A stretch of DNA of 64,000 bases, from assembly GCF_038050405.1 (NCBI RefSeq), contig NZ_CP150900.1, positions 1,922,001 through 1,986,000 of the forward strand, in the 5' to 3' direction. Position numbers and translations under genes: made by a program. Origin of the DNA: Paraburkholderia sp. IMGN_8 (GTDB taxonomy: Bacteria > Pseudomonadota > Gammaproteobacteria > Burkholderiales > Burkholderiaceae). The notes below the pieces were generated by a model. The model did not search any database and was not told the DNA's origin. It saw only the letters and a list, made by a program, of their open reading frames with translations. Positions 8,031 to 26,108 of this stretch are shown here, in pieces (within the stretch, counting starts at the first letter, position 1; each line of letters begins with the position of its first letter).

Positions 8031-8075
8031 CGCCAACGCTAATACTTTGTTGGACTCGATGACCCGGAGAAAAAA

Positions 8076-9039: not shown

Positions 9040-9058
9040 AGCTCCTCAGGTGGGTGCA

Positions 9059-10117: not shown

Positions 10118-10126
10118 GGAGCGCCC

Positions 10127-12235: not shown

Positions 12236-12341
12236 ACGACCCCCACGCTCACTATCGTTCGCTGACCCCTCCCCCAAGGGGACTTCCTTCGGGGCGCGAG
12301 GGGGCGAATGCCTCCCTTGGGGCGGCCCGGCGGGAGGCATC
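12236..12341 (+). repeat. GC-rich hairpin spacer inside the efflux operon
   Basis: This 106-bp spacer carries several C-run/G-run pairs (for example CCCCCAAGGGG near 12272, and a GGGG…CCCTTGGGG set near 12295-12325) that can fold into stem-loops. It ends in a good ribosome site, GGGAGG, for the next gene. It could attenuate expression of the outer membrane component. I infer this only from the base composition and pairing. Confidence 0.35.
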
Positions 12342-13829
12342 ATGAATGCGCGATCGGGTGTACGCGATTGGCGATGGCGTCGATGCTTTTTATGCGTTGC
12401 GTGGATGTCTTCCGTGCTGCCGGGTTGCGCGCTGATCCATCATAACGGCACGCCCTATGCCGAGATCGCGCCCGAGCAGATCAATCTCGCGAACGACATC
12501 CATCTCGCGCGCGACGGCTGGCCCGCCGCGCGCTGGTGGACACGCTATCGCGATGCGCAGCTCGAGGCGCTGATCGATCAGGCGCTAGCCGATGCGCCGA
12601 CGATGGTGATTGCGCGAACGCGCGTCGCGCAGGCGAAGTCTGATGTGGAGCTTGTCAGAGCGGGGTCGAATCTTCAGGTGGTCGCGTTGGCGTCGCTGGA
12701 TCGCGAGCATATTTCCGCGAACGGCTTTCTCGGCCCGTTCGCGAAGAACGAACCGGCTGCAGGGCTGACGGGGCCGTGGTACACCGAGGGCATCGTCGGG
12801 CTGGGTGCAAGCCTGGACGTCGACATCTGGGGCAAGCAGCGCGCGCAGATTGCCGCGTCGCTCGGCGTGAGCAATGCGCGGCTCGCCGAGACGTCCGCTG
12901 TCGAACTCGAAGTCTCGACGGATGTCACGCAGCTTTACTACGGCATTCAAACGACTTATCAGCTCATCGATCTGCTGAACGAATCGCATGAGATCGCGGT
13001 GTTCGCGGTGCAAGCACACGAAGCGCGAGCGGCGCGCGGGCTGGAAGCCCGCACCCAGCTCGAAGAAGCACGGGCGCAGCAGCTGGCCATCGAACGGCAG
13101 ATCGTGTCGGCGCAAGGGCAGATAAAACAGTTTCGCGAATCGATGCGGGCGCTGGTCGGTGCTGGCCCCAACAGCTTGCCGGCGATCGAGCCCGTGGCAC
13201 TGCCGCGCTCGCAGGCGGCCTTGCCGACGACGCTCTCGTACGAACTGCTTGCCCGGCGGCCCGACTTGCAGGCGATGCGATGGTATGTGGAGGCGTCGTT
13301 TGACCGGATCGACGCAGCGAAGGCGGCGTTTTATCCGAGCTTCGACATCAAGGCGTTTTTCGGCCTCGACGCATTGCATCTCGCGGACCTCTTCACGCAT
13401 GCAAGCCAGCAGATCAACCTGATTCCGGGCCTGACCTTGCCGATTTTCGACGGTGGCAGGCTCAACGCGAACCTCAACGGCGCACGCGAGGGCAGCAACC
13501 TGTCGATCGAGCAGTACAACCAGGCTGTCCTCAACGCGGTACGCGATGTCGCGCAGACGGGCAGCCGTCTGCAGGCTCTCGATGCGCAGACCGAGTTGCA
13601 GAAGCAACGGATCGAATCGGTTGCGTTCGCGAGGGACAGCGTCGAAGCCTATTATCAACGCGGACTGACGAGCCGGCTCGCGGCGCTCGAAGCGCGCCAG
13701 CCGGTGATCGCCGAACAGGTTGCGCTGCTCACGCTCAACGGCCAGATGCTCAGCCAGGAGATTGCATTGACGAAGGCGCTCGGCGGCGGCTATCGCGCCG
13801 ATCCGCCCGTCGAACTGAAGCCGCGTTGA
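12342..13829 (+). CDS. mdtP: NodT-type outer membrane efflux lipoprotein (MdtP-like)
   Basis: 495 residues. A lipoprotein signal ends in VLPGC (Cys29). Two outer-membrane-efflux (TolC-like) repeats follow, with the expected LDVDIWGKQRAQIAAS segment near 160 and LLARRPDLQAMRW near 300, and the second-repeat FPSFDIKAF / LPIFDGGRLNANL pattern. The ATG at 12342 has GGGAGG before it; the open frame continues upstream inside the FUSC gene only as an overlap. It completes the pump made with the adaptor and FUSC protein. Confidence 0.9.
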   Translation: MNARSGVRDWRWRRCFLCVAWMSSVLPGCALIHHNGTPYAEIAPEQINLANDIHLARDGWPAARWWTRYRDAQLEALIDQALADAPTMVIARTRVAQAKSDVELVRAGSNLQVVALASLDREHISANGFLGPFAKNEPAAGLTGPWYTEGIVGLGASLDVDIWGKQRAQIAASLGVSNARLAETSAVELEVSTDVTQLYYGIQTTYQLIDLLNESHEIAVFAVQAHEARAARGLEARTQLEEARAQQLAIERQIVSAQGQIKQFRESMRALVGAGPNSLPAIEPVALPRSQAALPTTLSYELLARRPDLQAMRWYVEASFDRIDAAKAAFYPSFDIKAFFGLDALHLADLFTHASQQINLIPGLTLPIFDGGRLNANLNGAREGSNLSIEQYNQAVLNAVRDVAQTGSRLQALDAQTELQKQRIESVAFARDSVEAYYQRGLTSRLAALEARQPVIAEQVALLTLNGQMLSQEIALTKALGGGYRADPPVELKPR

Positions 13830-13833
13830 ACGG

Positions 13834-14061
13834 CGCGCGTTCAACGATACAGACGTTGCCGGCTATCTGGATGCGGTGGGAAAGCGTATCGATGTGTGGC
13901 TCGACGGCGGTATCACGACGGGCCAGGATGTACTGAAGGCCGTGGCACTGGGCGCGCGCGGCACGACGATCGGTCGGGCCGGCGATTCTCTCGGCTCATC
14001 ATCCGTCGCGGCTTTAGCAATCTTTGCGGCGCTGACGCGTACGCGTGAACATGAGGAGTAG
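13834..14061 (+). pseudogene. Remnant of an FMN-dependent alpha-hydroxy-acid dehydrogenase (C-terminal part)
   Basis: The frame from about 13834 reads a stretch typical of the FMN-binding end of lactate dehydrogenase/glycolate oxidase enzymes: VWLDGGITTGQDVLKAVALG followed by ARGTTIGRA. A family member is about 380 residues; here only about 65 relevant residues remain, with no N-terminal catalytic part upstream, where the efflux gene ends. After GRA the sequence leaves the family. It is a decayed fragment lying between the efflux operon and the LysR gene. Confidence 0.6.
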
Positions 14062-14096
14062 AAAATGCAGTTCAAGTGGCGTCGGGGAATTTGAAA

Positions 14097-14996
14097 ATGC
14101 GTCTGTCAAAGGTCGATCTGAATCTCTTCGTTGTCTTCGAAGCCGTCTACAGAACACGAAACCTGACGCGCGCAGCGGAGATGCTGTTCATCACTCAGCC
14201 TGCTGTCAGCAATGCATTGGCGCGGATGCGCAAAGCATTCGACGATCAGCTTTTTGTCAGTACGTCGGCCGGCATGATGCCGACTCCCGTTTCGGAAAAC
14301 ATCATCGGCCAGGTTCGTGAGGCGCTGCAGCTGCTTGACTCGAGCACTCACGTCGGAGGACGCTTCGACCCCGCCTCGTCTGAGCGTACGTTTCGGCTGA
14401 GCATGACCGACCTCACGGAGGCGCTCCTTCTGCCCGCACTGGAGGAGGTGCTGCAGCGACTGGCGCCCGGCATCCGCATCGAAAGCTATTTCACGACGCG
14501 TAAAGAGGTTCCGGAAGCGTTAGCCAGCGGTGTGGTCAATCTTGCCATCGACGCGCCGCTGATTGACGACCCAGACCTCGAGCAGGAGCCACTCGGTGGC
14601 GACCGGTATGCATGCATGCTGCGTCACGACCATCCGTTTACCAGGAAGAAGCTGACGATCGATGACTACCTCGGGTTCGGTCATATCCACGTATCCAGCC
14701 GCCCCCAGGGATCTGGTCTCGTCGATGCGGAACTGAACAAGCTGGGCCTCAGGCGATCGATTCGGACGCGGGTTCAACACTATCTGGTCGCCCCATTGAT
14801 CGCGATGCGAACCGATCTTGTCCTCACAGCCCCGCTCGTGCTCCTTCAGCGGTATGACGCGCGAGTCCTGGCGCTGCCGTTCGATCTTCCGGATCTCGAG
14901 TCTCATTGCTACTGGCATCGAAGCGTGACCGAGGACCCGGCTCATCGTTGGCTGCGCGAGCAGATCGGCCGTCTCATGCGGGAGATGAACCAGTAG
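14097..14996 (+). CDS. LysR-family transcriptional regulator
   Basis: 299 residues. An N-terminal winged helix (about 5-65: DLNLFVVFEAVYRTRNLTRAA…ITQPAVSNALARMR) of the NodD/NahR-like type is followed by a type 2 periplasmic-binding-like effector domain (about 95-295). The ATG at 14097 is preceded by GGGGAA; a GTG seven codons earlier is possible. It is on the same strand as, and 131 bp before, a phosphatase/kinase/SDR/ACAD run. It is the obvious candidate regulator of that run, possibly through the palindrome at 15048-15059. Confidence 0.85.
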   Translation: MRLSKVDLNLFVVFEAVYRTRNLTRAAEMLFITQPAVSNALARMRKAFDDQLFVSTSAGMMPTPVSENIIGQVREALQLLDSSTHVGGRFDPASSERTFRLSMTDLTEALLLPALEEVLQRLAPGIRIESYFTTRKEVPEALASGVVNLAIDAPLIDDPDLEQEPLGGDRYACMLRHDHPFTRKKLTIDDYLGFGHIHVSSRPQGSGLVDAELNKLGLRRSIRTRVQHYLVAPLIAMRTDLVLTAPLVLLQRYDARVLALPFDLPDLESHCYWHRSVTEDPAHRWLREQIGRLMREMNQ

Positions 14997-15047
14997 CCGG
15001 GGCTTACGGGACATACGGGGCACACGCACCGGGTGTCACGAAAACTT

Positions 15048-15059
15048 ATAGCCGGCTAT
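15048..15059. promoter_or_regulatory. Perfect 12-bp palindrome, candidate operator
   Basis: ATAGCCGGCTAT is perfectly self-complementary. It lies in the 131-bp gap between the LysR gene and the histidine phosphatase gene, about 70 bp before the latter's start, where an operator would be expected. Binding by the LysR protein is inferred from position only. Confidence 0.35.
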
Positions 15060-15127
15060 CACAACAATCAATTTCCTGAATGATGCGGCGCTGGGTATTC
15101 TGCTAGCCATGTTGAAACGAGGATGGC

Positions 15128-15814
15128 ATGGCAGAACTCTATCTTGTACGGCATGGTCAGGCGTCCTTCGGCGCCGAAAACTATGACGAGCTATCTCCTT
15201 CCGGCCGGACCCAATCACGTTGGCTCGGCGAGCACTTCGCGCAGGCGAAATTGCGCTTCGATCGCGTTGTCATCGGCACGATGCAGCGGCATCAGCAAAC
15301 TGCCGATGCCATTCTCGCCGCGATGGGTGGGCCGCAAGTCGAGATCGCGCAAGACGCGGGTCTGAACGAATACGATTTCCAGGCATTGTTCGCAGCCCTC
15401 GGCGAGGAGGGCTTGCCGCTGGGTTTGTCTGCAGGTCCGTCGGCCACAAGTTCAAAGAAGGACTTTTACAAAGGGCTCCGGCAAGTGCTGCAGCTTTGGG
15501 CCGATGACCGCTTGCCTGGCCGTGTTCCAGAGACATGGCATCAATTCCAGACGCGTGTCCAGCGTGCGCGCATCGACATCCAGCGAGCTGGCGGCAGGCG
15601 CGTTCTGGTGGTGAGTTCGGGTGGTCCGCTCGCGGTAACCGCCCAACAGGTTCTGCAGGCGCCTGCTGCGACCGCGATTGCGCTCAACATGCAGATTCGA
15701 AACAGCAGTGTTTGCCAATATGTCTTTAACGACGGTGCGATGTCGCTAGTCAGCTTCAATTCAGTACCTCATCTCGAACGTGCCGACAGACATGAATTTG
15801 TCACCTACGGCTGA
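15128..15814 (+). CDS. Histidine phosphatase (phosphoglycerate-mutase-like) family protein
   Basis: 228 residues. The RHG motif lies at 8-10 (LVRHGQASFG, phospho-accepting His9), with the second family region near VVIGTMQRHQQTA and a C-terminal SSGGPLAV in place of the usual SHG. Family members remove phosphate from many small molecules. It opens a run with an APH-fold kinase, an SDR and an ACAD10/11-like dehydrogenase; a phosphatase of this type often accompanies such kinase/ACAD pairs. The Ser-Gly-Gly form of the last motif (His is usual) may affect activity, so a non-canonical role cannot be excluded. Confidence 0.8.
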   Translation: MAELYLVRHGQASFGAENYDELSPSGRTQSRWLGEHFAQAKLRFDRVVIGTMQRHQQTADAILAAMGGPQVEIAQDAGLNEYDFQALFAALGEEGLPLGLSAGPSATSSKKDFYKGLRQVLQLWADDRLPGRVPETWHQFQTRVQRARIDIQRAGGRRVLVVSSGGPLAVTAQQVLQAPAATAIALNMQIRNSSVCQYVFNDGAMSLVSFNSVPHLERADRHEFVTYG

Positions 15815-15839
15815 CCTCAATCCGGATTCCTGCTACATC

Positions 15840-16856
15840 ATGCATGCCAGCGTTCAATTCGACATCGAAGATCTCACACGTTATCTCACGGCGCACGTGC
15901 CCGGGTTTCAAGGGCCGTTGTCCGTCGAGAAATTCCCCGGCGGACAATCCAATCCGACGTTTCTTTTGAGGGCGCAAAGCGGTCGCTACGTGCTGAGGCG
16001 TCAACCTCCCGGCACACTGCTCAAGGCCGCCCATGCCGTTGATCGTGAGTTTCGCGTGCTGTCGGCGCTCGGCCGAACACCGGTCCCTGTTGCCCGTGCC
16101 TATCACCTTTGCGAGGACCGTGACGTCATCGGTAGCCTGTTTTACGTCATGAGCTACGAGGACGGGCGAATCTTCTGGAATCCGGCGCTGCCCGAAGTAC
16201 CCGTCGAGGAGCGTGGCTCCATCTACGACGCACTGCTTGGCACGATGGCGGCTCTCCACGACGTGGATATCGACGAAGCCGGATTGTCGGACTACGGCCG
16301 CCCGGGCAACTATTTCGCGCGTCAAATCGACATCTGGACCAAGCAATATCGCGCCGCGCAGACCGAGATATTGGAGGCAATGGAGTCGCTGATCGAGTGG
16401 CTGCCTGCCCACTGTCCGGCGGAATCCGGAAAGCCTTCGCTCGTGCACGGAGATTTCCGTATCGACAACCTCATTTTCATGCACGGTGCGCCGCAAGTTC
16501 GCGCTGTTCTCGACTGGGAGCTATCCACGCTCGGCAATCCTCTGGCTGACATTGCGTACTTCTGCATGTGTTTGCGGCTCCCGCCAGGCAGCCATATCGC
16601 CGGACTCGCGGGCTTGAATCGAGGGGCGTTGGGGGTGCCGGACGAGGCGTCGATTGTCGAGCGGTATTGCGAGTTCCGGGGCATTTCGTCGATTGAAAAC
16701 TGGAACTTCTACCTGGCGTTCAGCTTCTTCCGGCTCGCCGCTATCGCACAGGGCGTGAAGAAGCGGGCCTTGAGCGGTAACGCGTCGAATGAAAAGGCGC
16801 GACAGGTGGGGGAGATGGCCGGTGCGCTTGCGAAGATGGGCATTGAGCTGATCTGA
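15840..16856 (+). CDS. APH-fold phosphotransferase, ACAD10/11 kinase-domain (LvaA-like) family
   Basis: About 338 residues from the ATG at 15840 (an ATG at 15792 or GTG at 15780 would overlap the phosphatase gene; none has a strong ribosome site). Family features are GGQSNPTFLL in the N-lobe, the catalytic loop HGDFRIDN (His203-Asp205) and DWE near 225. Homologues are the kinase half of vertebrate ACAD10/ACAD11 and LvaA of Pseudomonas levulinate catabolism, which phosphorylate a 4-hydroxyacyl-CoA so that the partner ACAD can eliminate phosphate. The partner ACAD gene lies at 17733, and an SDR sits between them. The substrate here is unknown. Confidence 0.82.
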   Translation: MHASVQFDIEDLTRYLTAHVPGFQGPLSVEKFPGGQSNPTFLLRAQSGRYVLRRQPPGTLLKAAHAVDREFRVLSALGRTPVPVARAYHLCEDRDVIGSLFYVMSYEDGRIFWNPALPEVPVEERGSIYDALLGTMAALHDVDIDEAGLSDYGRPGNYFARQIDIWTKQYRAAQTEILEAMESLIEWLPAHCPAESGKPSLVHGDFRIDNLIFMHGAPQVRAVLDWELSTLGNPLADIAYFCMCLRLPPGSHIAGLAGLNRGALGVPDEASIVERYCEFRGISSIENWNFYLAFSFFRLAAIAQGVKKRALSGNASNEKARQVGEMAGALAKMGIELI

Positions 16857-16899
16857 AGACAGGCGGGAAATTCGGAACGTAGACATAGGGAGACTGATT

Positions 16900-17664
16900 G
16901 TGATTACTAATTTGTTTGATCTGAAGGGAAAGATTGCTCTGGTGACGGGTGCCAGCCGGGGTATCGGCGAGGAAATCGCCAAACTACTCGCCGAGCAGGG
17001 TGCCCACGTGATTGTGTCGAGCCGCAAGCTGGAAGATTGCGAATCTGTCGCACGCGAGATCAAGGCGGCGGGCGGGAGCGCTGAAGCGCAACCGTGCCAT
17101 GTCGGGCGTGTTGAGGACATTCTTACGATCTTCCAGCATATTCGTGCACGGCATGGCCGTCTGGACATCCTCGTCAACAACGCGGCGACGAATCCCTATT
17201 TCGGCCACATTCTTGATACCGACCTGACGTCATTCGAAAAGACAGTGGAAGTCAACTTGCGCGGTTATTTCTTCATGTCAGTGGAGGCGGGCAAGTTGAT
17301 GCGGGAGCACGGCGGCGGTGCGATCGTCAACACGGCTTCGGTCAATGCATTGCAGCCTGGCGACAGGCAGGGAATCTACTCGATCACCAAAGCCGCTGTG
17401 GTCAACATGACGCGGGCATTCGCGAAGGAGTGCGGGCCGTTGGGGATTCGAGTGAATGCGCTGCTCCCGGGATTGACAAAAACCCGCTTTGCGGGGGCAC
17501 TGTTCGAAGATCAGGCTACCTACGAAAACTGGATATCGCGCATCCCGCTGCGGCGCCACGCGGAACCTCGTGAGATGGCGGGTACCGTGCTTTATCTGGT
17601 GTCCGACGCTGCGAGCTATACCAATGGAGAGTGTGTAGTCGTCGACGGTGGACTGACGATCTAG
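16900..17664 (+). CDS. Short-chain dehydrogenase/reductase
   Basis: 254 residues, classical SDR. The nucleotide motif TGASRGIG is at 16-23, NNAA follows near 90, the catalytic Ser is in NTASVNA, and YSITK places Tyr160 and Lys164. An AGGGAGA site precedes a GTG start. It lies between the LvaA-like kinase and the ACAD. In levulinate and ACAD10/11-type clusters an SDR (LvaD) likewise accompanies the pair, which suggests oxidation or reduction of a hydroxyacyl intermediate. The cofactor preference is not certain; the SSRK after beta2 hints at NADP(H). Confidence 0.88.
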   Translation: MITNLFDLKGKIALVTGASRGIGEEIAKLLAEQGAHVIVSSRKLEDCESVAREIKAAGGSAEAQPCHVGRVEDILTIFQHIRARHGRLDILVNNAATNPYFGHILDTDLTSFEKTVEVNLRGYFFMSVEAGKLMREHGGGAIVNTASVNALQPGDRQGIYSITKAAVVNMTRAFAKECGPLGIRVNALLPGLTKTRFAGALFEDQATYENWISRIPLRRHAEPREMAGTVLYLVSDAASYTNGECVVVDGGLTI

Positions 17665-17732
17665 TCAAGTGGTCGAAGCGCGCTGTTGGCCGACGCGTCG
17701 ACGACATTAATCACGATTCTGGAAGAGTAAAA

Positions 17733-19019
17733 ATGGACTTTGCATATAGCCCGAAAGTCGAAGCGCTGCGCACCCAGGTGCGTACGTTCATGGACGCTCA
17801 CATCGTTCCGCGCATCCGGCGATGGCACGAGGAAGTGAGTGCGGGTCAATATCCGGTTTCCTTTATGGAGACCTTGAAGGAGCAGGCGCGTGAAGAGGGT
17901 CTCTGGAATCTGTTCCTTCCGCATCTGCGCGACGACGAGCCCGGTACCCGTCTGACCAATCTCGAATACGCGCCCCTGGCTGAAATCATGGGGCGTGTAT
18001 CTTGGGCATCGGAGGTATTCAACTGCAATGCGCCGGACACGGGCAATATGGAGCTGCTCCATATGTTTGCCACGCCCGCTCAGCGCAAAGAGTGGCTCAA
18101 GCCCCTTCTCGACGGCAAGATCCGCTCGGCGTTTGCGATGACGGAGCCGGCTGTGGCCTCCTCGGACGCGACCAATATCACGACGTCGATTCGACTTGAC
18201 GGGGATGACTATGTCATCGACGGCCGGAAGTGGTTCATCACGAATGCAGCACACCCGAATTGCACGCTCTTCATCGTGATGGGCAAAACGGATCCGGACG
18301 CACCGAGCCACCGTCAGCAGAGCATGATTCTCGTGCCCCGCGATACACCCGGCGTCAAGGTGATCCGCAATATCACGGTGGTCAATCACCTGGCACCGGA
18401 AGGACACTGCGAGATCGAGTTCAAAGAGGTGCGCGTACCCCGGTCGAATCTCCTCGGTGAAGAGGGCAGCGGCTTTGCGCTCGCGCAGGCGCGCCTTGGG
18501 CCGGGACGGATTCACCACTGCATGCGGTCGATTGGCGCCGCCGAACTGGCGCTCGAGTTGATGGTGGAACGGGCCCAGGCACGCACGACATTCGGAAAGA
18601 TGCTGCATGAGCACGGGTCCGTCGCCGAATGGATCGCGAAGTCCAGAATCGAAATCGATCAAGCGAGGCTGTTTGTTCTCAAAACCGCGTGGATGATCGA
18701 CAACGTGGGTGCGAAGGAGGCGCGCAAGGAGATCTCGATGATCAAGGCGCTCGTACCAAGTGTTCATACCGCCGTTTGCGAGCGGGCAATGCAGGTGTTT
18801 GGCGCGATGGGGCTGAGCCCCGACACGCCATTGGCCGATAGCTGGACGTGGGGCCGTGCGTTGCGGTTCGCAGATGGCCCGGACGAGGTTCACTTGCAGA
18901 GCATTGCACGGATGGAACTCAAGGCGCAGCCCTATGAACCGGGGAAGGATAATCCCTACCTGATGACGTCGGCGCAATGCATAGCGCCAGTTTCAACGCT
19001 TTGCATGGGACCCGAGTAA
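17733..19019 (+). CDS. Acyl-CoA dehydrogenase, ACAD10/11-like (LvaC-like)
   Basis: 428 residues with all ACAD regions: FAMTEPAVASSDATNI (flavin/substrate segment), the central beta-domain, and the ADGPDEVH motif near 386-393 that is common in ACAD10/11-type enzymes. GGAAGAG precedes the ATG at 17733. It probably works with the APH-fold kinase at 15840 to dehydrate a hydroxyacyl-CoA through a phosphorylated intermediate, as shown for LvaA/LvaC and ACAD10/11. The last seven residues (TLCMGPE) and the stop codon are encoded inside the first copy of a palindromic repeat, so the native C-terminus has been replaced or extended. Confidence 0.88.
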   Translation: MDFAYSPKVEALRTQVRTFMDAHIVPRIRRWHEEVSAGQYPVSFMETLKEQAREEGLWNLFLPHLRDDEPGTRLTNLEYAPLAEIMGRVSWASEVFNCNAPDTGNMELLHMFATPAQRKEWLKPLLDGKIRSAFAMTEPAVASSDATNITTSIRLDGDDYVIDGRKWFITNAAHPNCTLFIVMGKTDPDAPSHRQQSMILVPRDTPGVKVIRNITVVNHLAPEGHCEIEFKEVRVPRSNLLGEEGSGFALAQARLGPGRIHHCMRSIGAAELALELMVERAQARTTFGKMLHEHGSVAEWIAKSRIEIDQARLFVLKTAWMIDNVGAKEARKEISMIKALVPSVHTAVCERAMQVFGAMGLSPDTPLADSWTWGRALRFADGPDEVHLQSIARMELKAQPYEPGKDNPYLMTSAQCIAPVSTLCMGPE

Positions 19020-19095
19020 GCGCTAAAGCGCTAACTCGGGTCGACAGCTTTGCATGGGACCCGAGTAAGCATTAAAGCGCTAACTCGGGTCGACA
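18998..19095 (+). repeat. Two tandem copies of a 49-bp palindromic repeat
   Basis: Copies at 18998-19046 and 19047-19095 differ only by two bases in the centre. Each has a TTTGCATGGG lead, an outer stem ACCCGAGT/ACTCGGGT, an inner stem GCGCT/AGCGC (damaged in the second copy, GCATT) and a CGACAG tail. A third, oppositely oriented copy lies at 61865-61911 with a matched change in both arms of the outer stem. The first copy contains the TAA stop of the ACAD gene. It resembles REP-type elements. Confidence 0.8.
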
Positions 19096-19108
19096 GACTG
19101 ACCTTGCG

Positions 19109-19134
19109 GGGGCGCCTTGGGTTTCCGGCGCCCC
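19109..19134. terminator. Stem-loop between convergent genes
   Basis: GGGGCGCC at 19109-19116 pairs perfectly with GGCGCCCC at 19127-19134 across a 10-base loop. It lies between the convergent ends of the ACAD gene and the TetR gene. There is no long T-run, so it may be a bidirectional hairpin that slows or ends transcription rather than a textbook intrinsic terminator. Confidence 0.5.
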
Positions 19135-19157
19135 GGCGAGACGACTAGCGCTCGCCG

Positions 19158-19835
19158 TCAGATCCTCCCCAACAAGGACCGCGTTTCTTCCGACGGCTCT
19201 GCGGTGAGTACGCTTTCAAACGTGTCCATCAAGCTGGACACGGCGTATTGCGGGGACCAGAGCCCGCCAGACTCGCCATTGTCCCGACTCGCTTCCCACG
19301 CTGCCAGTGCGGCATTGCCGTAGATGCCGACGAGCGACAGTCTGTGATCGACTATTGCCGGCGGAATAGGGGAAAGCAGGTTCCGGAGCTGGGCGTTGCA
19401 ACGCTGATAACCCAGATTCCACTTGTTTTCCAGCGCCTCCCGCAAGAACGCGCGGTTGTTCAACTGCAAGTTGGCGATCATGCGGATGTACGTCGCCTGA
19501 CCCGTACGATCCGCCAGATCAAGCATCGGAAAGAGCAGCGCGCCCAATACCGCTCGCACGTTTATCCCGCCCTCTGCCTCCAGTCTGTCGAGCCGCGCCT
19601 GACGGTCTTCGTCTATAAGGCGCGCGCCGTCGACGACCAGCTCACGTGCCAGTTCAAGTTTGTTCCCGAAGTAGTAGCGCAGCGAGGCGCTGTTGCGCTG
19701 CCCTGCAGCGGAGATGATGTCCTGTACGGACACTCCGTCCAATCCGCGCAGCGCGAACAGGCGTTGGGCTTCTTCTTTTAAGCGAATTCGTGTCTCCGCC
19801 CCATCCGAGCGAAGGGTTTTCCCTGACGTCGTCAT
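19158..19835 (-). CDS. TetR-family transcriptional repressor
   Basis: 225 residues. The N-terminal HTH (about 14-62) reads through RLFALRGLDGVSVQDI and the recognition end SLRYYFGNKLELARE. The C-terminal two-thirds is a helical ligand-binding region with no family-specific signature I can name. Its start lies 63 bp from that of the flavin hydroxylase/hydrolase fusion on the other strand, and a perfect palindrome sits between them. It most likely represses the fusion/ligase/porin run and itself, and responds to a pathway acyl-CoA or aromatic compound. Confidence 0.85.
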   Translation of the reverse strand: MTTSGKTLRSDGAETRIRLKEEAQRLFALRGLDGVSVQDIISAAGQRNSASLRYYFGNKLELARELVVDGARLIDEDRQARLDRLEAEGGINVRAVLGALLFPMLDLADRTGQATYIRMIANLQLNNRAFLREALENKWNLGYQRCNAQLRNLLSPIPPAIVDHRLSLVGIYGNAALAAWEASRDNGESGGLWSPQYAVSSLMDTFESVLTAEPSEETRSLLGRI

Positions 19836-19850
19836 TACTTTACCGTGTCG

Positions 19851-19862
19851 AGTTAATTAACT
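19851..19862. promoter_or_regulatory. Candidate TetR operator, perfect 12-bp palindrome
   Basis: AGTTAATTAACT is fully self-complementary and lies in the 63-bp divergent gap between the TetR gene and the hydroxylase/hydrolase fusion gene. It is AT-rich in a GC-rich neighbourhood. Position and symmetry fit an operator that overlaps both promoters; binding is inferred. Confidence 0.55.
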
Positions 19863-19898
19863 ACACTGGCATAACTAACCCAGTTGGAGAAACTTAGC

Positions 19899-22031
19899 AT
19901 GAAAGTCATCGTTGTTGGAGGAGGCATTGGTGGGCTCACGACCGCTCTGGCACTGCTGCGCCACGGCATCGAGCCGATTGTACTGGAGCGCGCACCGCAA
20001 TTGACCGAGGTCGGAGCCGGTGTCCAGATCGCTGCGAACGGCACGATCGTGCTGCGGGAACTGGGGCTTGAGCCGGCGCTGGCGAGCGTTGCGACCGTGC
20101 CGGAGCGCTTTGACTACCTCGAGTTGTCAACGGGGCGTCTCCTGTACGTTGCCCCGCTCGGTAAGGAGGCGGAGGCACGTTACGGCGCGCTGCTCTACAA
20201 CGTCCACCGCGCCGACCTGATCGACTTGCTCGCGAAGGCCGTGCCGCCCAATGTGATCCGGCTGGGGGCGCAATGCGCGTCGGTTTCCCAGGACGACGAG
20301 GGCGCCTACGTCACGCTGCAAAACGGCGAAGTGATTCGTGGCGACGCCGTGATCGGCGCGGATGGCATTCACTCTGCCGTTCGGACGGCCCTGCGGGGAC
20401 CCGAGGAGAAGCAGTTCGCCAACATCCTCATGTGGCGCTCGCTCATCCCCGCCGACCGGCTCAAGGGCCTGAAGTTGCCGGTGGCGGGGAACAACTGGTT
20501 CGGCGTGGGCAGGAATATCGTCTCGTACTGGGTGCGCAAGGACCTCTACAGCATTCTTGCGTCGGTGCCGGCAACCGAAGTGAGCCGCGAGTCGTGGACG
20601 CAGTCGGGGGACGTCGCGCAACTGCGGCGCTCGTTCGCGGGTTCCGAGCCGACCGTCCAGAAGATGCTGGAAGCGGTGGACTCGACGTTCATTACCGGGA
20701 TGTACCACCGGGATCCGATTGAACACTGGAGTACCGGACGGATCGCCCTGCTCGGCGACGCCGCGCATGCAATGGTGCCCTATCTGGCTCAAGGCGCCTG
20801 CCAGGCGATCGAAGACGCATGGGTCCTCGCCACCTGTCTCAAGAACCATGGCCCGGCCGGCGTTCAGGACGCGCTGCTGGAATACGAACGGCGCCGCCAG
20901 CCGCGTACGACGCGGATTCAGGCGGGCGCGCGATTTGTCGTCGACTGGGCACACGAGCCCGACGAGGCGCGTGTACACCAGCGTAACGGACGCCTGAAGG
21001 GGCTCTCGCGTATCGATCCGCTGGCAGAGGCTTCGTGGTCGTTCGCATGGGGGCACGACATCCTCGAGGCCGTCAAGCTGCCGCCGGGCGAGGTCGTAGG
21101 CTTGAGCGCGGCACGCGAAGGAAAGCGGATGGAGCGCCCCGAGAGTCAGCGCGCTTTCGATCTCTGGAAGGGCGTGTTCAAGCCGGATGACATTGCGCGT
21201 GGCGACCGGGGGCAGCGTGCGGCGTACGAACGGTTCCTTCTGGAGCAGTTCCCGGCGCCCGCACGCACCGAAGTGACGGACGTCGATCTTCATGGGGTGA
21301 GCTCGTTGCGCGTGGTTGCAGCGGGAGCAGGGCACAAGGCGACCGTGTTGCACTTCCACGGCGGTGGCTACGTGCTGGGAACGGCTAAGAGCTCGGTTGA
21401 ATACGCAAGCCGTCTCTCGCGCGCCCTGAACGGTCCGTGCTACACGGTCGACTATCGCCTCGCGCCCGAGCATCCGTATCCGGCAGCATTCGATGACGCA
21501 TTCAGCGCCTATCGCGGCTTGCTCGCTTCGGGTGTCGATCCGTCGACGGTGTTCCTGAGCGGTGAATCGTCCGGTGGCGGCCTTGCACTGGCGTTGGCTG
21601 CTGCGTTGCGTCGCGCGGGCCTGCCGTTGCCGGGCGGCGTCATTGCAATCTGCCCGCTCACTGACCTCACGCTTGGCGGCCCCTCCGTCATGGCGAATTC
21701 GGGAGACGACCCGGCCGCGAATCGCGAGACGCTTTCCAACCTCGTCGCGTCTTACTTCCAGGGCCACGAGCCGACCGATCCGATGGTGTCGCCCCTGTTC
21801 GCGGACCTGGCGGACCTACCGCCGGTGTTCCTTTCGGCCGTCGAAGGAGAGGTGCTGGAAAGCGACACGACTCGCTTTGCGCAGCGGGCAAGGAGAGCCG
21901 GCGCGAACGTGAAGCTGAAGATGGTGGCCGATTCGGTCCACGTCTTCACGCTCTTCCCGTTCCTGCCGGAGACCGCCGAAACGCTTGAAGAAATCGGCCA
22001 GTGGAGCCGCCAGCTCGCGATTTGCGCGTGA
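19899..22031 (+). CDS. Fusion of a class A flavin monooxygenase with an HSL-type alpha/beta hydrolase
   Basis: 710 residues in one frame. Residues 1 to about 385 are a flavin hydroxylase of the salicylate/3-hydroxybenzoate hydroxylase type: GGGIGG at 7-12, the DG motif GADGIHSAVR, and GDAAHA near 287. After a linker, about 440-705 is an alpha/beta hydrolase of the hormone-sensitive-lipase family: oxyanion HGGGY starting at 487, nucleophile Ser557 in GESSGG, and a C-terminal His in DSVHVF. At the usual catalytic Asp position I read Glu (GEVLESD). An ATG at 19899 after TTGGAGAA is the start. Two enzymes normally encoded separately are joined, which suggests the product of one feeds the other. 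An acyl-CoA ligase follows 65 bp downstream. The substrate is unknown; an aromatic ester or lactone is my guess. Confidence 0.85.
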   Translation: MKVIVVGGGIGGLTTALALLRHGIEPIVLERAPQLTEVGAGVQIAANGTIVLRELGLEPALASVATVPERFDYLELSTGRLLYVAPLGKEAEARYGALLYNVHRADLIDLLAKAVPPNVIRLGAQCASVSQDDEGAYVTLQNGEVIRGDAVIGADGIHSAVRTALRGPEEKQFANILMWRSLIPADRLKGLKLPVAGNNWFGVGRNIVSYWVRKDLYSILASVPATEVSRESWTQSGDVAQLRRSFAGSEPTVQKMLEAVDSTFITGMYHRDPIEHWSTGRIALLGDAAHAMVPYLAQGACQAIEDAWVLATCLKNHGPAGVQDALLEYERRRQPRTTRIQAGARFVVDWAHEPDEARVHQRNGRLKGLSRIDPLAEASWSFAWGHDILEAVKLPPGEVVGLSAAREGKRMERPESQRAFDLWKGVFKPDDIARGDRGQRAAYERFLLEQFPAPARTEVTDVDLHGVSSLRVVAAGAGHKATVLHFHGGGYVLGTAKSSVEYASRLSRALNGPCYTVDYRLAPEHPYPAAFDDAFSAYRGLLASGVDPSTVFLSGESSGGGLALALAAALRRAGLPLPGGVIAICPLTDLTLGGPSVMANSGDDPAANRETLSNLVASYFQGHEPTDPMVSPLFADLADLPPVFLSAVEGEVLESDTTRFAQRARRAGANVKLKMVADSVHVFTLFPFLPETAETLEEIGQWSRQLAICA

Positions 22032-22096
22032 CGCAAGCAATCGGTTTCAAGGCGCTACGCCATATCACTGCATTTCGTCTCACGCTCGGAGTAGAC

Positions 22097-23797
22097 ATGA
22101 CGGCAACATCAACGCGTCGGCTGGTCGACGTGCCGCGGCAGATATCCGTGCCGCAGACATCGCTATACACGAATCTCGAAGTCTCCTCGAACCGCCATCC
22201 GGAAAAGGCCGCAATCCTTTACTACGGCAGCACCGTAAGCTACAGGCAATTGCGACATGAAGTCGAAGCGCTGGCCGGATTCCTGCAGCAGCACTGCGGC
22301 ATCGCCCGGGGTGAGCGCGTCGTCCTGTACATGCAGAACAGTCCGCAGTTCGTCGTCGCCTTCTATGCGGTGCTGCGCGCGGATGCCGTAGTCGTGCCCG
22401 TCAATCCGATGAACCGGACTGCGGAGCTGCAACACATACTCGAAGATAGCGGGGCTAGAGTCGCCTTCGTCGGCGAAGAACTTATGGAGCACGTACGGTC
22501 GCTGTCGGGTCGCCACGTGGACTATGTGATCCCCGCACGCTATGCCGACTATCTTTGCGACAAGACCGATCTGCCGCTGCCCGACGTCCTGACATCGTCC
22601 GGACCGCAGCCTCGTGCAGAATCTGTCCGCTGCCATGCTGCCCTCGTCGGCTGGAACGACGCACTCTCTCGTGCGTGCATTGCCCGCGACCACGAATCCC
22701 GGCCCGAGGATCTCGCGGTCATTCCGTATACGTCCGGCACGACTGGTCGCCCCAAAGGGTGCATCCATACACATCGTAGCGTGATGCATTCAACGGTCTC
22801 GTGCGCTGAATGGCCGAACCTCGCGAACGAGAGCGTGATGCTGTGCTCGGTACCGTTGTTTCACGTCACCGGCATGCAGAACTGCATGAACATGCCGATA
22901 TTCATCGGCGCCACGATGGCGATCATGACCCGCTGGGACGCGAAATGTGCCGCGCACGTGATCGAACGTCACCGCGCAAGCACATGGGTCACTGTTCCCA
23001 CGATGCTCATCGACCTGCTGAACATGGCGGACGTCGACAAGTTCGACCTGAGCTCCATTGCGTACCTGAGCGGCGGCGGTGCCGCGATGCCGCAGGCTGT
23101 CGCGCAGCAGATCCAGCAGCGTTGGGGCATTCCGTACGTAGAAGGGTACGGCCTCACCGAGACGATGGCGGCGACCCACATCAATCCGCCGAAGCACAGT
23201 AAGCAACAGTGCATGGGAGTGCCGGTCTTCAACACGGATTCACTCGTCGTCGATCCCGAGACGCTCAAGCCTCTTGGTGAAGAAGAAACAGGCGAGATTC
23301 TCGTCAGCGGGCCTCAAGTATTCGACGGGTATTGGAAGTCGCCGGAAGCCACGCAAGATGCATTCGTTCTGATCGATAGGAAGCGATACTTGCGCACCGG
23401 AGACCTCGGCTACGTGGATCGGGACGGATATTTCTTCATCGTCGACCGGCTAAAGCGCATGATCAATGCCTCTGGCTACAAAGTCTGGCCGGCCGAGGTC
23501 GAGGCCATGCTGTTCGAGCATCCCGCCATACAGGAAGCGTGTGTCATTGCGACGCACGATCCGCGTCGAGGCGAGTCGGTAAAGGCGGTCATCGTGCTTC
23601 GGAACGGCGAGCACGCGACGGGAGAGGAAATTGTGTCGTGGGCCCGCGAGCGCATGGCGTCCTATAAGGTCCCCCGCGTCATTCAGTTTGCCGCCAGCTT
23701 GCCCCGTACGGCGAGCGGAAAGATCCAGTGGAGACTGCTGCAGGAAGAGGAAACGCGGAGTCGAAACGCCCAATCCGAAGACCGCCGGCTGGATTGA
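22097..23797 (+). CDS. AMP-forming acyl-CoA synthetase
   Basis: 566 residues of the acyl/aryl-CoA ligase superfamily. The P-loop is IPYTSGTTGRPKG, the A5 motif YGLTETMA, A7 YLRTGDLGYVDRDGY, A8 DRLKRMINASGYKVWPAEVE in part, and the A10 lysine lies in RTASGKIQW. GGAG stands before the ATG at 22097. It is directly downstream of the hydroxylase/hydrolase fusion and probably activates an acid released by the hydrolase domain, so that the kinase/ACAD/SDR run on the other side of the TetR gene can act on the CoA ester. Sequence alone does not tell aryl from fatty acid substrates. Confidence 0.87.
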   Translation: MTATSTRRLVDVPRQISVPQTSLYTNLEVSSNRHPEKAAILYYGSTVSYRQLRHEVEALAGFLQQHCGIARGERVVLYMQNSPQFVVAFYAVLRADAVVVPVNPMNRTAELQHILEDSGARVAFVGEELMEHVRSLSGRHVDYVIPARYADYLCDKTDLPLPDVLTSSGPQPRAESVRCHAALVGWNDALSRACIARDHESRPEDLAVIPYTSGTTGRPKGCIHTHRSVMHSTVSCAEWPNLANESVMLCSVPLFHVTGMQNCMNMPIFIGATMAIMTRWDAKCAAHVIERHRASTWVTVPTMLIDLLNMADVDKFDLSSIAYLSGGGAAMPQAVAQQIQQRWGIPYVEGYGLTETMAATHINPPKHSKQQCMGVPVFNTDSLVVDPETLKPLGEEETGEILVSGPQVFDGYWKSPEATQDAFVLIDRKRYLRTGDLGYVDRDGYFFIVDRLKRMINASGYKVWPAEVEAMLFEHPAIQEACVIATHDPRRGESVKAVIVLRNGEHATGEEIVSWARERMASYKVPRVIQFAASLPRTASGKIQWRLLQEEETRSRNAQSEDRRLD

Positions 23798-24031
23798 TCT
23801 GTTGGCCTGCCGAAGCGCGCGATGAGTAGTCGAAGCAGGGCAGGCTCGGCGTACCGGTGACATCAAAGGATGAGGTGTTCGTCGAGTCGGCAGGTTGATC
23901 AAGTCGTCTACGCCCATTGAGTCACGCAATAAGAAGAAACCGGGCGCTCGCGCTCAGCTGGCAATAAATGAGTTGTAGATGCGACTCATATAATTCGTAG
24001 TGCGACATAATCATAATGCTGGAGTTTATAA

Positions 24032-25183
24032 ATGAAGAAGGTAAGGAGATTGTTCGGAAAAGAGCGGCATCGACGCAAGGCCGGCCTGTTGGCTGCCATC
24101 ATGTCTACCGCGACGCTGTACTCCGTCTCAGCAGCCGCGCAGTCGTCGGTAACGCTTTACGGCCTCGTCGATACGGGAATTCGCTACACCACTCATGCGG
24201 ATCCGCAAGGCGATTCTCGCGTCCAGCTCGCCAGCGGCGCAAGCGAGAGCCACTTCGGATTCAAGGGGGTGGAAGACATGGGTGGCGGAACGTTGGTCCT
24301 ATTCGACCTTGAGGATCGCTTCTTCCCGAACTCCGGGGCGACGGACCCCGCCTATCCGTTCTTCAATACGGCTTTTGTTGGCGTGCAGTCGAGCAGTTAC
24401 GGAAAGTTGACAATGGGGCGTCAGATCAACCCACTTGCTGACGCTGTTCTGAGAGCCTTCGTGACCAATCTATGGCTCCCGACCTTCTACCAGTTTCGGC
24501 CGGAAGTCATGATGGCTCAGGGCGTGTGGACAAGCAACATGGTCAAATATGCGGCGAGATGGCAATACCTGACGGCTGAGGTGTCGTATGCGTTTGGTGG
24601 CAATGCAGGCGCATTTGGTGCGGGAAGTCAGATTGGGGCATCGCTTCTCTATTTGCCCGGCGAACCATTGCGACTGGCTGCCGCGTACCTGGACTCGCGC
24701 GATGCCGTGAACACCTCCGCGCACCTCAAATCCTGGACTGCCGGCGGGTCATATTCGTTCGGAAATACGACGCTCACGGCAGGCTGGGCGGTGAACCGGC
24801 AGGATGCCGGCTTTGTCGGCAATTTCCCTAACGGGCCATTCAGCGCGCCGGAATTGTCCGCGCTTAAATTCAATACGTTCAGTTCCCGGCAAATGTTTTT
24901 TGGTGGGGTGACGCAGCAGGTAGCGGACGTGATTCACCTTTCTGCGAATGTGTGGCGCACGATTCAGACCGGGAAGACGCAAGCAGCCAACGGGAACGCG
25001 ACGCAATTCCAGCTGCTTGCGGACTATAACTGGTCGAAACGCACGGATACCTATCTGGAAGCGGACTACTCGCTGTACCGCGGCGGAATGGTTGGTGCCC
25101 AGTTCCAGGGCATCAACGCCCTAAGCTCGGCGTACGGCACGACCCAGCTAGGCATCATGGCTGGCTTGCGGCATATGTTCTAG
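24032..25183 (+). CDS. Porin, Gram-negative Porin_4 (OmpC-like) family
   Basis: 383 residues. The signal peptide is preceded by a basic N-terminus (MKKVRRLFGKERHRRK) and cleaves near SAAAQS, followed by SVTLYGLVDTGIRYTT, the standard first strand. The middle keeps HFGFKGVEDMGGGTL and the LTMGRQ turn; the last residues GLRHMF give the required C-terminal Phe. GGAG precedes the ATG at 24032. It ends the hydroxylase/ligase run, although a 234-bp gap may hold its own promoter. It probably admits the aromatic substrate of this cluster. Confidence 0.9.
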   Translation: MKKVRRLFGKERHRRKAGLLAAIMSTATLYSVSAAAQSSVTLYGLVDTGIRYTTHADPQGDSRVQLASGASESHFGFKGVEDMGGGTLVLFDLEDRFFPNSGATDPAYPFFNTAFVGVQSSSYGKLTMGRQINPLADAVLRAFVTNLWLPTFYQFRPEVMMAQGVWTSNMVKYAARWQYLTAEVSYAFGGNAGAFGAGSQIGASLLYLPGEPLRLAAAYLDSRDAVNTSAHLKSWTAGGSYSFGNTTLTAGWAVNRQDAGFVGNFPNGPFSAPELSALKFNTFSSRQMFFGGVTQQVADVIHLSANVWRTIQTGKTQAANGNATQFQLLADYNWSKRTDTYLEADYSLYRGGMVGAQFQGINALSSAYGTTQLGIMAGLRHMF

Positions 25184-25210
25184 GGTCTGTTCATATGTGA
25201 ACAGACCCTA
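25181..25210. terminator. Long perfect inverted repeat overlapping the porin stop codon
   Basis: TAGGGTCTGTTCA (25181-25193) and TGAACAGACCCTA (25198-25210) pair perfectly over a 4-base loop, and the first three bases are the porin stop codon. As RNA this is a strong 13-bp hairpin that could end the porin transcript, though no T-run follows. The arm resembles the edge of a sequence at 34591 (GGCTCTGTTCACATTTT), so it may instead be two insertion-sequence ends lying back to back. Confidence 0.6.
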
Positions 25211-25478
25211 GGCTGCCTCCGGGACGACGAGCGGCTCGAGAGAGCGCAGGCGGGAGCGATCACTGACAATCCTGAAAGGACGAAAGAATGTCCTTCGAAC
25301 ATATTTCGATTCGACCATACCGGAGGGCGATCGCTCCTTTTTCGGCCATGGACAACTCGCGACACAACGCGCCGAGCAGGTTGCGCACATATCAATATCC
25401 GACGCAGATCTGTCTGTTGAAGAGTCATCTTCAGTGGATCGTTGAACCGTACGAAAGAGACTGGTCGTTCGAGCGAGG

Positions 25479-25937
25479 TTAAACGAGGTCGTCAAGCGCG
25501 CCAGCGTTCTCGTACAACCTGAGCAGCATGGAGCGCAACACCCTGATGTCGCTTGCATTGAAGCCAGAGAGGACCACCGACTCATGGCGCTTTGCGACAG
25601 GGACGATGCGCAGAGCAAGTTCTTCCCCCTTTTCCGTCAGGACAACCCTGATCGACCGTCCATCGGTTTCGCTCCTCTCCCGCCGCACTAACTCTTGATC
25701 CTCAAGCCGGTCAATGATCCTGGAAAGCGCCGAAATATCTGACGATGCGTGGACAGACAGTTCAGACAAAGTCTGGCCCGGAACGTACAGAAGCGAGGCG
25801 CAGACTCGCCACTCGCTGAGGTTCAGGCCAAACGGTTTGAGTGCCTTCGAGAACGCGTTTCCCATCCGGCTCGTGGCGCGTGCCATCAGGAAGGGAACCG
25901 CTTTTTCCAATTCTTCTGGCCGCTTGGAGGTGTTCAT
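25479..25937 (-). CDS. MarR-family transcriptional regulator
   Basis: 152 residues from the ATG at 25937 (a TTG four codons earlier is in frame). The MarR winged helix lies at about 35-105: FGLNLSEWRVCASLLYVPG, the recognition region SDISALSRIIDRLEDQ and the wing RRERSETDGRSIRV. It is divergent from the gamma-resorcylate decarboxylase operon, and two identical 12-base sites lie in the 171-bp gap. MarR proteins of aromatic pathways (HpaR-, BadR-like) are usually relieved by an aromatic acid or CoA ester. Confidence 0.87.
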   Translation of the reverse strand: MNTSKRPEELEKAVPFLMARATSRMGNAFSKALKPFGLNLSEWRVCASLLYVPGQTLSELSVHASSDISALSRIIDRLEDQELVRRERSETDGRSIRVVLTEKGEELALRIVPVAKRHESVVLSGFNASDIRVLRSMLLRLYENAGALDDLV

Positions 25938-25977
25938 GATCGTCGCCAAAATTGAGGGTTAACGTGGGTTCATGTAC

Positions 25978-26022
25978 TTGAAAAATCAATTATACTCCGC
26001 TCCATAGTAGTTGAAAAATCAA
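25978..26022. promoter_or_regulatory. Paired palindromic operator sites (TTGA-4-TCAA)
   Basis: The word TTGAAAAATCAA occurs twice, at 25978-25989 and 26011-26022. Each is a TTGA/TCAA inverted repeat, and they are 33 bp apart, close to three helical turns, so two dimers would sit on the same DNA face. They lie between the MarR gene and the decarboxylase gene, 41 and 74 bp from the MarR start codon. The best reading is a MarR operator controlling both directions; this is inferred from position and symmetry. Confidence 0.65.
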
Positions 26023-26108
26023 GTAAAGCGATGTCCGGATGAACCTGTGTGGGACGCCCGACGTTCCTTGGGTCGGTAGGGTGTTGCGCGTTGAACTGGA
26101 GCAGACCG

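What the first reader, a model, noticed from the sequence alone, without database searches (positions are those of the whole stretch)
14097..25183. Candidate undescribed pathway: hydroxylase-esterase fusion, CoA ligase and LvaA/ACAD10-11-like kinase-dehydrogenase module
Seen: LysR, histidine phosphatase, APH-fold kinase, SDR and ACAD on one side; TetR; fusion enzyme, acyl-CoA ligase and porin on the other. Known: LvaA/LvaC in levulinate catabolism and ACAD10/ACAD11 phosphorylate a hydroxyacyl-CoA and eliminate phosphate. Inferred: an ester or lactone is hydroxylated and hydrolysed, the released hydroxy acid is activated to CoA, phosphorylated and dehydrated for beta-oxidation. I know of no described cluster with this combination.
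Basis: partly seen in the sequence, partly recalled or inferred. Interest (0 to 1): 0.82.

Follow-up and report, generated by a model that had tools for sequence, protein, structure and literature searches.

The report
Two neighbouring catabolic gene modules
Two separately controlled sets of food-breaking genes sit side by side in a soil bacterium: one closely resembles a published pathway for 4-hydroxy acids, the other is built around an uncharacterised enzyme that joins an esterase to a ring-oxidising enzyme.

The parts
14097..14996 (+). LysR-type regulator of the kinase module (module A)
   Evidence: Pfam LysR_substrate + HTH_1; a relative of it lies by the module in 10 of 13 fetched genomes without the fusion
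15128..15814 (+). histidine phosphatase, partner of the kinase (module A)
   Evidence: Pfam PF00300; next to the kinase in 13 of 13 fetched genomes without the fusion; a histidine phosphatase is in the P. citronellolis levulinate cluster
15840..16856 (+). APH-fold kinase of LvaA / ACAD10-11 type (module A); frame open from 15780
   Evidence: PF01636 174 bits; aligned to mouse ACAD11 kinase 8v3v, keeps D220, N225, R86, R176 equivalents
16900..17664 (+). SDR, candidate 4-oxoacyl-CoA reductase like LvaD (module A)
   Evidence: NF005446 464 bits, cut-off 373; 65% to the SDR of a HisPhos-APH-SDR cluster of P. citronellolis, L152
17733..19019 (+). ACAD of LvaC / ACAD10-11 type, candidate phosphate eliminase (module A); frame open from 17631
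   Evidence: Keeps R626, R631, H634-C-M-R637 and D753 of mouse ACAD11
19158..19835 (-). TetR-family regulator, divergent to the fusion (module B)
   Evidence: PF00440; divergent neighbour of the fusion in 42 of 49 loci with at least 1 kb upstream
19852..19880 (.). operator-like palindrome GTTAATTAAC (19852-19861) with a degenerate second copy at about 19871-19880, between TetR and the fusion
   Evidence: only exact match in the window; similar TTAA-rich sites before the fusion in relatives by eye, not scored
19899..22031 (+). fusion enzyme: group A flavoprotein monooxygenase (model residues 3-398, to about 21077) + HSL-family esterase (model residues 417-713, about 21132-22022); frame open from 19884
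22097..23797 (+). acyl/aryl-CoA ligase (module B); frame open from 22001
   Evidence: PF00501; NF006181 831 bits, cut-off 705; beside the fusion in 21 of 48 loci
24032..25183 (+). outer-membrane porin (module B)
   Evidence: PF13609; in 13 of 16 loci with fusion identity of 85% or more, 0 of 32 below

Best explanation
Two adjacent, separately regulated catabolic modules. Module A (LysR, histidine phosphatase, kinase, SDR, ACAD) works like the levulinate (lva) / ACAD10-11 route: the SDR interconverts a 4-oxoacyl-CoA and a 4-hydroxyacyl-CoA, the kinase phosphorylates the 4-hydroxyl, and the ACAD eliminates phosphate to a 2-enoyl-CoA for beta-oxidation; the histidine phosphatase is an accessory of unknown role. 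Module B (TetR, fusion, CoA ligase, porin) takes up a small aromatic ester or thioester precursor. The esterase half hydrolyses the ester or thioester, and the TrlE-like flavin half hydroxylates the freed hydroxy-(hetero)arene, most likely by decarboxylative ipso-hydroxylation of a carboxylate. The CoA ligase activates an acid released or taken up in the process. Shown by sequence: families, intact active-site residues, gene order, separate distributions, operator-like site. Inferred: all reactions, the order of the two fused reactions, the substrate, the decarboxylation.
For: Module A: ACAD11 signature residues; published in vitro assays of Burkholderia orthologues and a published cluster with the same four enzyme families; phosphatase, kinase and SDR stand together without the fusion in 13 of 13 fetched genomes. 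Module B: TetR 42 of 49, CoA ligase 21 of 48, Peripla_BP_6 solute-binding protein 22 of 53 (0 of 16 close relatives, 22 of 37 others), porin 13 of 16 close relatives, which fits an imported small substrate. Fusion, in 45 selected sequences including the window's: HGG of the oxyanion hole, D661 and H686 in 45, S562 in 44; flavin-site R185 and Y215 in 45. Best-scoring solved FAD domains by sequence are TrlE, GsMNX1, vanillate 1-hydroxylase and NicC, all named or described as decarboxylating or as members of such groups. Two 38-40% identical fusions sit beside ring-cleavage-type genes: a gentisate-dioxygenase-like cupin and FAH-family proteins (L142), and a BphC-like dioxygenase with BphD/HsaD-like hydrolase, CoA ligase and metabolite/H+ symporter (L141).
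Confidence: 0.6

Rival explanations
1. One reading: the fusion opens or hydrolyses an ester or lactone, the CoA ligase activates the released hydroxy acid, and the kinase/ACAD remove its hydroxyl for beta-oxidation.
For: In 150 Burkholderiaceae genomes all 5 with the fusion (88% or more) also hold a kinase of 78% or more (5 of 7 such genomes against 0 of 143 others, Fisher p 3.5e-8, not corrected for relatedness), with gaps of 3-13 kb. In fusion loci of named genomes the kinase is within 10 kb in 4 (L038, L042, L044, L080) and at 13-21 kb in 4 more (L031, L033, L034, L037). Module A has no CoA ligase of its own in the window.
Against: Opposite-strand TetR between the halves, separate regulator genes, no copy of the operator-like site at the kinase module; 22 of 27 kinase genomes lack the fusion; 0 of 22 fusion loci below 85% identity with 9 kb on both sides have the kinase; in L137 the kinase module is followed by a CoA ligase-like gene (35% to the window's) in a genome whose fusion lies on a contig of another length. 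A ring hydroxylase is not needed to make an aliphatic 4-hydroxy acid.
Confidence: 0.12
2. The fused hydroxylase works like 3-hydroxybenzoate 6-hydroxylase (plain ring hydroxylation to a gentisate-type diol), with the esterase supplying the hydroxybenzoate from an ester or CoA thioester.
Against: NF006021 cut-off 459 not reached; catalytic His replaced in 43 of 45 sequences; TrlE and several decarboxylating enzymes score better in sequence; no ring-cleavage family next to the main-clade loci scanned.
Confidence: 0.2
3. The TetR-fusion pair is a detoxification cassette: a toxic plant or microbial ester (for example a phenolic or tropone-like compound) releases TetR and is inactivated by hydrolysis and oxidation, not used as food.
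For: TetR-fusion stands without CoA ligase or solute-binding protein in several loci (for example L053-L056, L061, L064, L073); an MdtN/MdtO-like efflux system lies at 9-13.8 kb in the window; nearest solved relative TrlE acts on a tropone-type precursor.
Against: In 34 of 48 loci a CoA ligase and/or a Peripla_BP_6 binding protein, both usual in catabolism, is beside it; the window is rich in aromatic-catabolism-type genes.
Confidence: 0.1

Closest known systems
Levulinate cluster of Pseudomonas citronellolis LA18T (LvaA, histidine phosphatase, LvaC, LvaD homologues; PMC6692424, abstract and passages) and the lva operon of P. putida (only through other papers)
   Same: Same four enzyme families as module A, including the histidine phosphatase and the lack of LvaB
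   Different: Here LysR instead of the sigma-54-type LvaR, no CoA ligase inside the module, gene order HisPhos-APH-SDR-ACAD; LA18T sequences were not in hand; in another P. citronellolis genome the best kinase is 35% and its neighbouring SDR 65% identical
ACAD10 / ACAD11 (PMC12440821 and PMC11342911, passages and one section; PDB 8v3u, 8v3v)
   Same: Kinase and ACAD keep the catalytic and phosphate-binding residues compared
   Different: Two separate bacterial proteins rather than one fused chain
TrlE, decarboxylating flavin monooxygenase of tropolone biosynthesis (PDB 8rqh; PMC11110157, passages)
   Different: TrlE acts after a separate thioesterase, TrlF; H213 is not conserved in the fusion
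EstD11 / Est8, HSL-family esterases (PDB 7at0, 6y9k)
   Different: Solved as stand-alone esterases of about 300 residues
Acinetobacter sal genes for salicylate esters (esterase SalE + hydroxylase SalA) - recalled from memory, no paper read
   Same: Esterase and flavin hydroxylase work in sequence
   Different: Separate proteins; product goes to catechol without a CoA ligase (recalled)
hcdABC of Pseudomonas mandelii 7HK4 (PMC6222606, abstract)
   Same: Flavin ipso-hydroxylase, extradiol dioxygenase and hydrolase, like part of the gene set around the 40% identical fusion L141
   Different: The abstract does not describe HcdA as an esterase fusion; no such ring-cleavage pair beside the window's fusion

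Membership tests
4-hydroxyacyl-CoA kinase (LvaA / ACAD10-11 kinase domain) | APH fold with catalytic D220, N225 and CoA-contact R86, R176 (ACAD11 numbering, PMC12440821) | tested here: met
   PF01636 174 bits; all four residues aligned (positions counted by hand)
4-hydroxyacyl-CoA kinase (LvaA / ACAD10-11 kinase domain) | phosphorylates 4-hydroxyacyl-CoA | not testable with these tools
   published only for relatives (PMC11342911)
LvaC / ACAD10-11 phosphate-eliminating ACAD | catalytic Asp D753, R626 and the HCMR motif | tested here: met
   (positions counted by hand)
lva operon | LvaD-type SDR next to kinase and ACAD | tested here: inconclusive
   an SDR is there, NF005446 over cut-off and 65% to the SDR of L152, but LvaD itself was not in hand
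lva operon | small LvaB protein beside LvaA | tested here: not met
   gaps between the plus-strand genes 15128-19019 are at most about 70 bases; also not found in the P. citronellolis LA18T cluster
lva operon | sigma-54-type regulator LvaR and CoA ligase LvaE in the same cluster | tested here: not met
   regulator is LysR; the nearest CoA ligase lies beyond the divergent TetR
group A flavoprotein monooxygenase | GxGxxG, DG and GD motifs, FAD_binding_3 fold | tested here: met
   (motif names recalled and)
TrlE / 3HB6H / NicC active-site type | Arg185 and Tyr217 (TrlE numbering) | tested here: met
   R185 and Y215 in 45 of 45
TrlE / 3HB6H / NicC active-site type | His213 (TrlE numbering) | tested here: not met
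   N 21, T 16, S 6, H 1, I 1 of 45
salicylate 1-monooxygenase (name given by JGI to many homologues) | TIGR03219 over its cut-off; Phe in place of the Tyr | tested here: not met
   142 bits against 446; Tyr present; Phe in SalH/NahG from passages of PMC11110157
3-hydroxybenzoate 6-monooxygenase | NF006021 over its cut-off | tested here: not met
   237 bits against 459
HSL-family esterase | Abhydrolase_3, HGG oxyanion hole, Ser/Asp/His triad | tested here: met
   174 bits; S562 in 44 of 45, D661 and H686 in 45 of 45; the NCBIfam subfamily NF058651 is below its cut-off (240 against 430)
HSL-family esterase | hydrolyses esters or thioesters | not testable with these tools
   needs assay

The most novel reading that the evidence does not exclude
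The fusion is a one-chain enzyme that splits an ester of a phenol-type compound and a 4-hydroxy or 4-oxo fatty acid, hydroxylates the aromatic half, and passes the aliphatic half through the neighbouring CoA ligase into the LvaA/ACAD10-11-like module, so that the two modules together digest both halves of one natural ester. The clustering of the two modules across Paraburkholderia and Trinickia (3-21 kb) does not exclude this.
Probability: 0.1. Interest if true: 0.65.

Novelty: new variant of a known kind. Interest (0 to 1): 0.4.

Why it matters
The esterase-monooxygenase fusion is a two-active-site enzyme found in many soil-type bacteria (record titles: Paraburkholderia, Burkholderia, Trinickia, Cupriavidus, Variovorax, Xenophilus, Bradyrhizobium, Afipia, Aeromicrobium, Pseudonocardia and others). 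The listings of the paper searches that I aimed at it or at likely routes showed me no description of it. Its substrate is a testable gap in aromatic-ester catabolism, and a covalent coupling of ester hydrolysis to ring hydroxylation is of use for biocatalysis. The kinase module adds a recurring histidine phosphatase beside 4-hydroxyacyl-CoA-type kinases, whose role is open.

Tried and rejected
Considered and rejected: (1) one operon for both halves - TetR lies on the opposite strand between them. (2) 'Salicylate hydroxylase' as the name of the fusion - family score far below cut-off and Tyr instead of Phe. (3) A shared operator: GTTAAYTAAC is found exactly only at 19852, and with one mismatch at 4756 (counting both strands 4 matches, the shuffles give 1.35 on average and 10 of 100 reach 4, so the number alone means little; the place is what counts). 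(4) Split versions of the fusion (separate FAD and HSL genes side by side): no HSL match among the 47 loci L007-L030 and L087-L109, but L007-L030 have only about 1.5 kb of flank. (5) Promoter and terminator scan of 13800-26100: no more sites than in shuffles, so uninformative. (6) Indole-3-carboxylate monooxygenase Icm as the known function: it is a stand-alone 414-residue protein. (7) Melilotate/dihydrocoumarin route: only a lead from the gene set around L141; not tested for the window. (8) A search with the histidine phosphatase over 274 genomes of the class: 36 with a match, most of them weak; of use only for the weak own-genome match upstream of the second kinase.

Limits: family scans of fusion neighbours covered 20 proteins of nine main-clade loci and ten of eight loci, not all; the genome scan kept the best 80 of 123 candidates. 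Near-duplicate assemblies (for example L046/L047, L048/L049) were not removed from counts. The 45 sequences of the residue count were chosen by me and the loci. Fisher tests ignore relatedness; the five fusion genomes are close kin or share transferred DNA. Active-site numbering against ACAD11 and TrlE was counted by hand from the printed alignments.
Full report
What is there. The window lies in a 9.1 Mb genome of two contigs. The genus is Paraburkholderia by this chain: the same-genus genome G120 holds the fusion on a contig of 2192838 bases, and the 88% identical protein P0086, named Paraburkholderia acidiphila, lies on a contig of that length. Likely starts are LysR 14097, kinase 15840, ACAD 17733, fusion 19899, CoA ligase 22097 (first suitable ATG in each frame).

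Kinase module. Among solved structures the kinase (P0003) matches a bacterial protein labelled 'putative acyl-CoA dehydrogenase' best (3dxp, 371 bits), then the kinase domain of mouse ACAD11 (266 bits, residues 15-357 of 358). The residues that PMC12440821 (passages read) names as catalytic or CoA-binding, D220, N225, R86 and R176, are all present. The ACAD (P0005) matches ACAD11 (399 bits) and one putative bacterial ACAD (4hr3, 382 bits); the next chain has 143 bits. It keeps R626, R631, H634-C-M-R637 and D753. PMC11342911 (section 13 and passages read) reports that kinase and ACAD orthologues from a Burkholderia species replaced the ACAD10 domains in vitro on 4-hydroxyhexanoyl-CoA. PMC6692424 (abstract and passages) describes in P. 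citronellolis LA18T a levulinate cluster with LvaA, LvaC and LvaD homologues and a histidine phosphatase, which it suggests may act on 4-phosphovaleryl-CoA. PMC9399607 (passages) restates that LvaD reduces levulinyl-CoA. So the four enzyme families of module A match a published set. The original lva paper is not held and was not read. Against too close an equation: in the P. citronellolis genome reached through L081, the best kinase is 35% identical and lies in a HisPhos / 103-residue ORF / kinase / SDR cluster (L152) in which the window's ACAD found no match; only the SDR is close (65%). I cannot say whether L152 is the LA18T cluster.

The module stands alone. A kinase of 68% identity or more is in 27 of 150 family genomes; the fusion (88% or more) is in 5 of the same 150, plus one full-length relative at 40% in G092. 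Of the 22 kinase genomes without the fusion I fetched 13 (L121-L132, L139): HisPhos, kinase and SDR lie together in 13 of 13, the ACAD was recognised in 11 of 13 (not in L127, L132) and a LysR relative in 10 of 13. The host has a second, more distant kinase/ACAD pair (53% and 56%) at C1:3260130-3262417, with a weak histidine-phosphatase match (35% over residues 4-76) just upstream.

Fusion neighbourhood. A scan of genome contigs gave 79 loci; 56 of them (L031-L086) encode the fusion at 58-97% identity, the other 23 only FAD-type relatives (capped at the best 80 of 123). With enough flank to judge: TetR next to the fusion in 42 of 49; CoA ligase (40% or more) in 21 of 48; Peripla_BP_6 solute-binding protein (35% or more) in 22 of 53; the module-A kinase (60% or more) in the locus in 4 of 37 (family of the binding protein). 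In the 16 loci at 85% identity or more: TetR 16 of 16, CoA ligase 13 of 16, porin 13 of 16, binding protein 0 of 16, kinase 4 of 15. In those below 85%: TetR 26 of 33, CoA ligase 8 of 32, binding protein 22 of 37, porin 0 of 32, kinase 0 of 22. Porin and binding protein appear to take each other's place, which suggests an imported small substrate (inference). In 14 of 48 loci neither CoA ligase nor binding protein was found.

Evidence for a link, told in full. Among the 15 of these with a fusion of 85% or more, all 15 hold a kinase of 69% or more somewhere; of the other 24 genomes, 2 (G169, G181) hold one of 66% or more. Linked on the same contig: about 3 kb apart in the window, L038, L042, L044, L080 and G120; about 9 kb in G051; about 13 kb in L031 (contig length agrees), L033 and L034; about 21 kb in L037. 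On another contig, or on one whose length or coordinates do not fit: L032, L035, L036, L039, L040, L041, L043, L050. In the 150-genome sample, fusion and a kinase of 78% or more coincide in 5, kinase only 2, fusion only 0, neither 143 (Fisher p 3.5e-8; with the 68% cut 5, 22, 0, 123, p 1.4e-4). These genomes are kin, and the fusion is 94-97% identical between the window and two Trinickia while the more distant core kinase is 85-88% identical to those of three such genomes, so joint horizontal transfer of a catabolic region is a simple reading. In L033 the two-component genes that lie at 3.4-8.4 kb in the window stand between TetR and the kinase module, so gene order in the region has been reshuffled.

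Distant fusions give function hints. L142 (38% identical, Bradyrhizobium plasmid) lies beside a cupin scoring 252 bits to gentisate 1,2-dioxygenase (cut-off 442), two FAH-family proteins, LeuCD-like proteins and a branched-chain-type ABC transporter. L141 (40%, from G092) lies beside a BphC-like extradiol dioxygenase (278 bits, cut-off 366), a BphD/HsaD-like hydrolase, a CoA ligase, an enoyl-CoA hydratase and a metabolite/H+ symporter. Both look like aromatic-ring pathways, which supports aromatic substrates for the family, not a particular compound for the window; the family scores are below curated cut-offs. Among 20 neighbours of nine main-clade loci I saw no ring-cleavage family; one locus (L061) has a separate MhpA-like ring hydroxylase and an MFS transporter beside it.

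Regulation. A perfect palindrome GTTAATTAAC lies at 19852-19861 between TetR and the fusion, with a degenerate copy about 20 bases on; TTAA-rich sites of similar look can be seen by eye before the fusion in many of the 24 relatives printed (not scored). There is no copy at the kinase module.

Verdict. The listings showed no description of the fusion; the library holds open-licence papers only, and I opened only a few of the papers listed.

Noticed in passing
window 26049-47647: Stretch rich in aromatic-catabolism-type genes: aldehyde dehydrogenase, two PcaK-like aromatic-acid symporters, molybdenum-hydroxylase-like subunit, enoyl-CoA hydratase, amidohydrolase, S15 hydrolase, CoA ligase, MhpA-like ring hydroxylase.
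   Followed up: no
window 9050-13829: MdtN/MdtO-like efflux system with outer-membrane factor, just upstream of the kinase module.
   Followed up: no
G000:C1:3259342-3262417 (locus L110): Second, more distant kinase / ACAD pair in the same genome (53% and 56% to the window's), with a weak histidine-phosphatase match upstream.
   Followed up: partly
L142:11941-14052: Distant fusion with Cys in place of the esterase nucleophile Ser, beside gentisate-type genes on a Bradyrhizobium plasmid.
   Followed up: no
L083 and L143: Damaged fusion copies: frameshifted in Cupriavidus basilensis OR16; on a Paraburkholderia plasmid a match to residues 26-563 only, no gene annotated there, IS630 transposase downstream.
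   Followed up: no
L059, L060, L071, L074, L082, L084: In these Bradyrhizobium/Afipia/Rhodopseudomonas loci no divergent TetR relative was found (L084 is cut there); a gene of another cluster, TetR-type in L074, follows the CoA ligase, in L059, L082 and L084 with a gene of a cluster that is a 4HBT thioesterase in L082.
   Followed up: no
window 3415-8441: Two-component-type genes; in relatives L032, L033 and L037 parts of this set lie directly beside TetR-fusion, so kinase module and efflux genes are placed differently in the window.
   Followed up: partly
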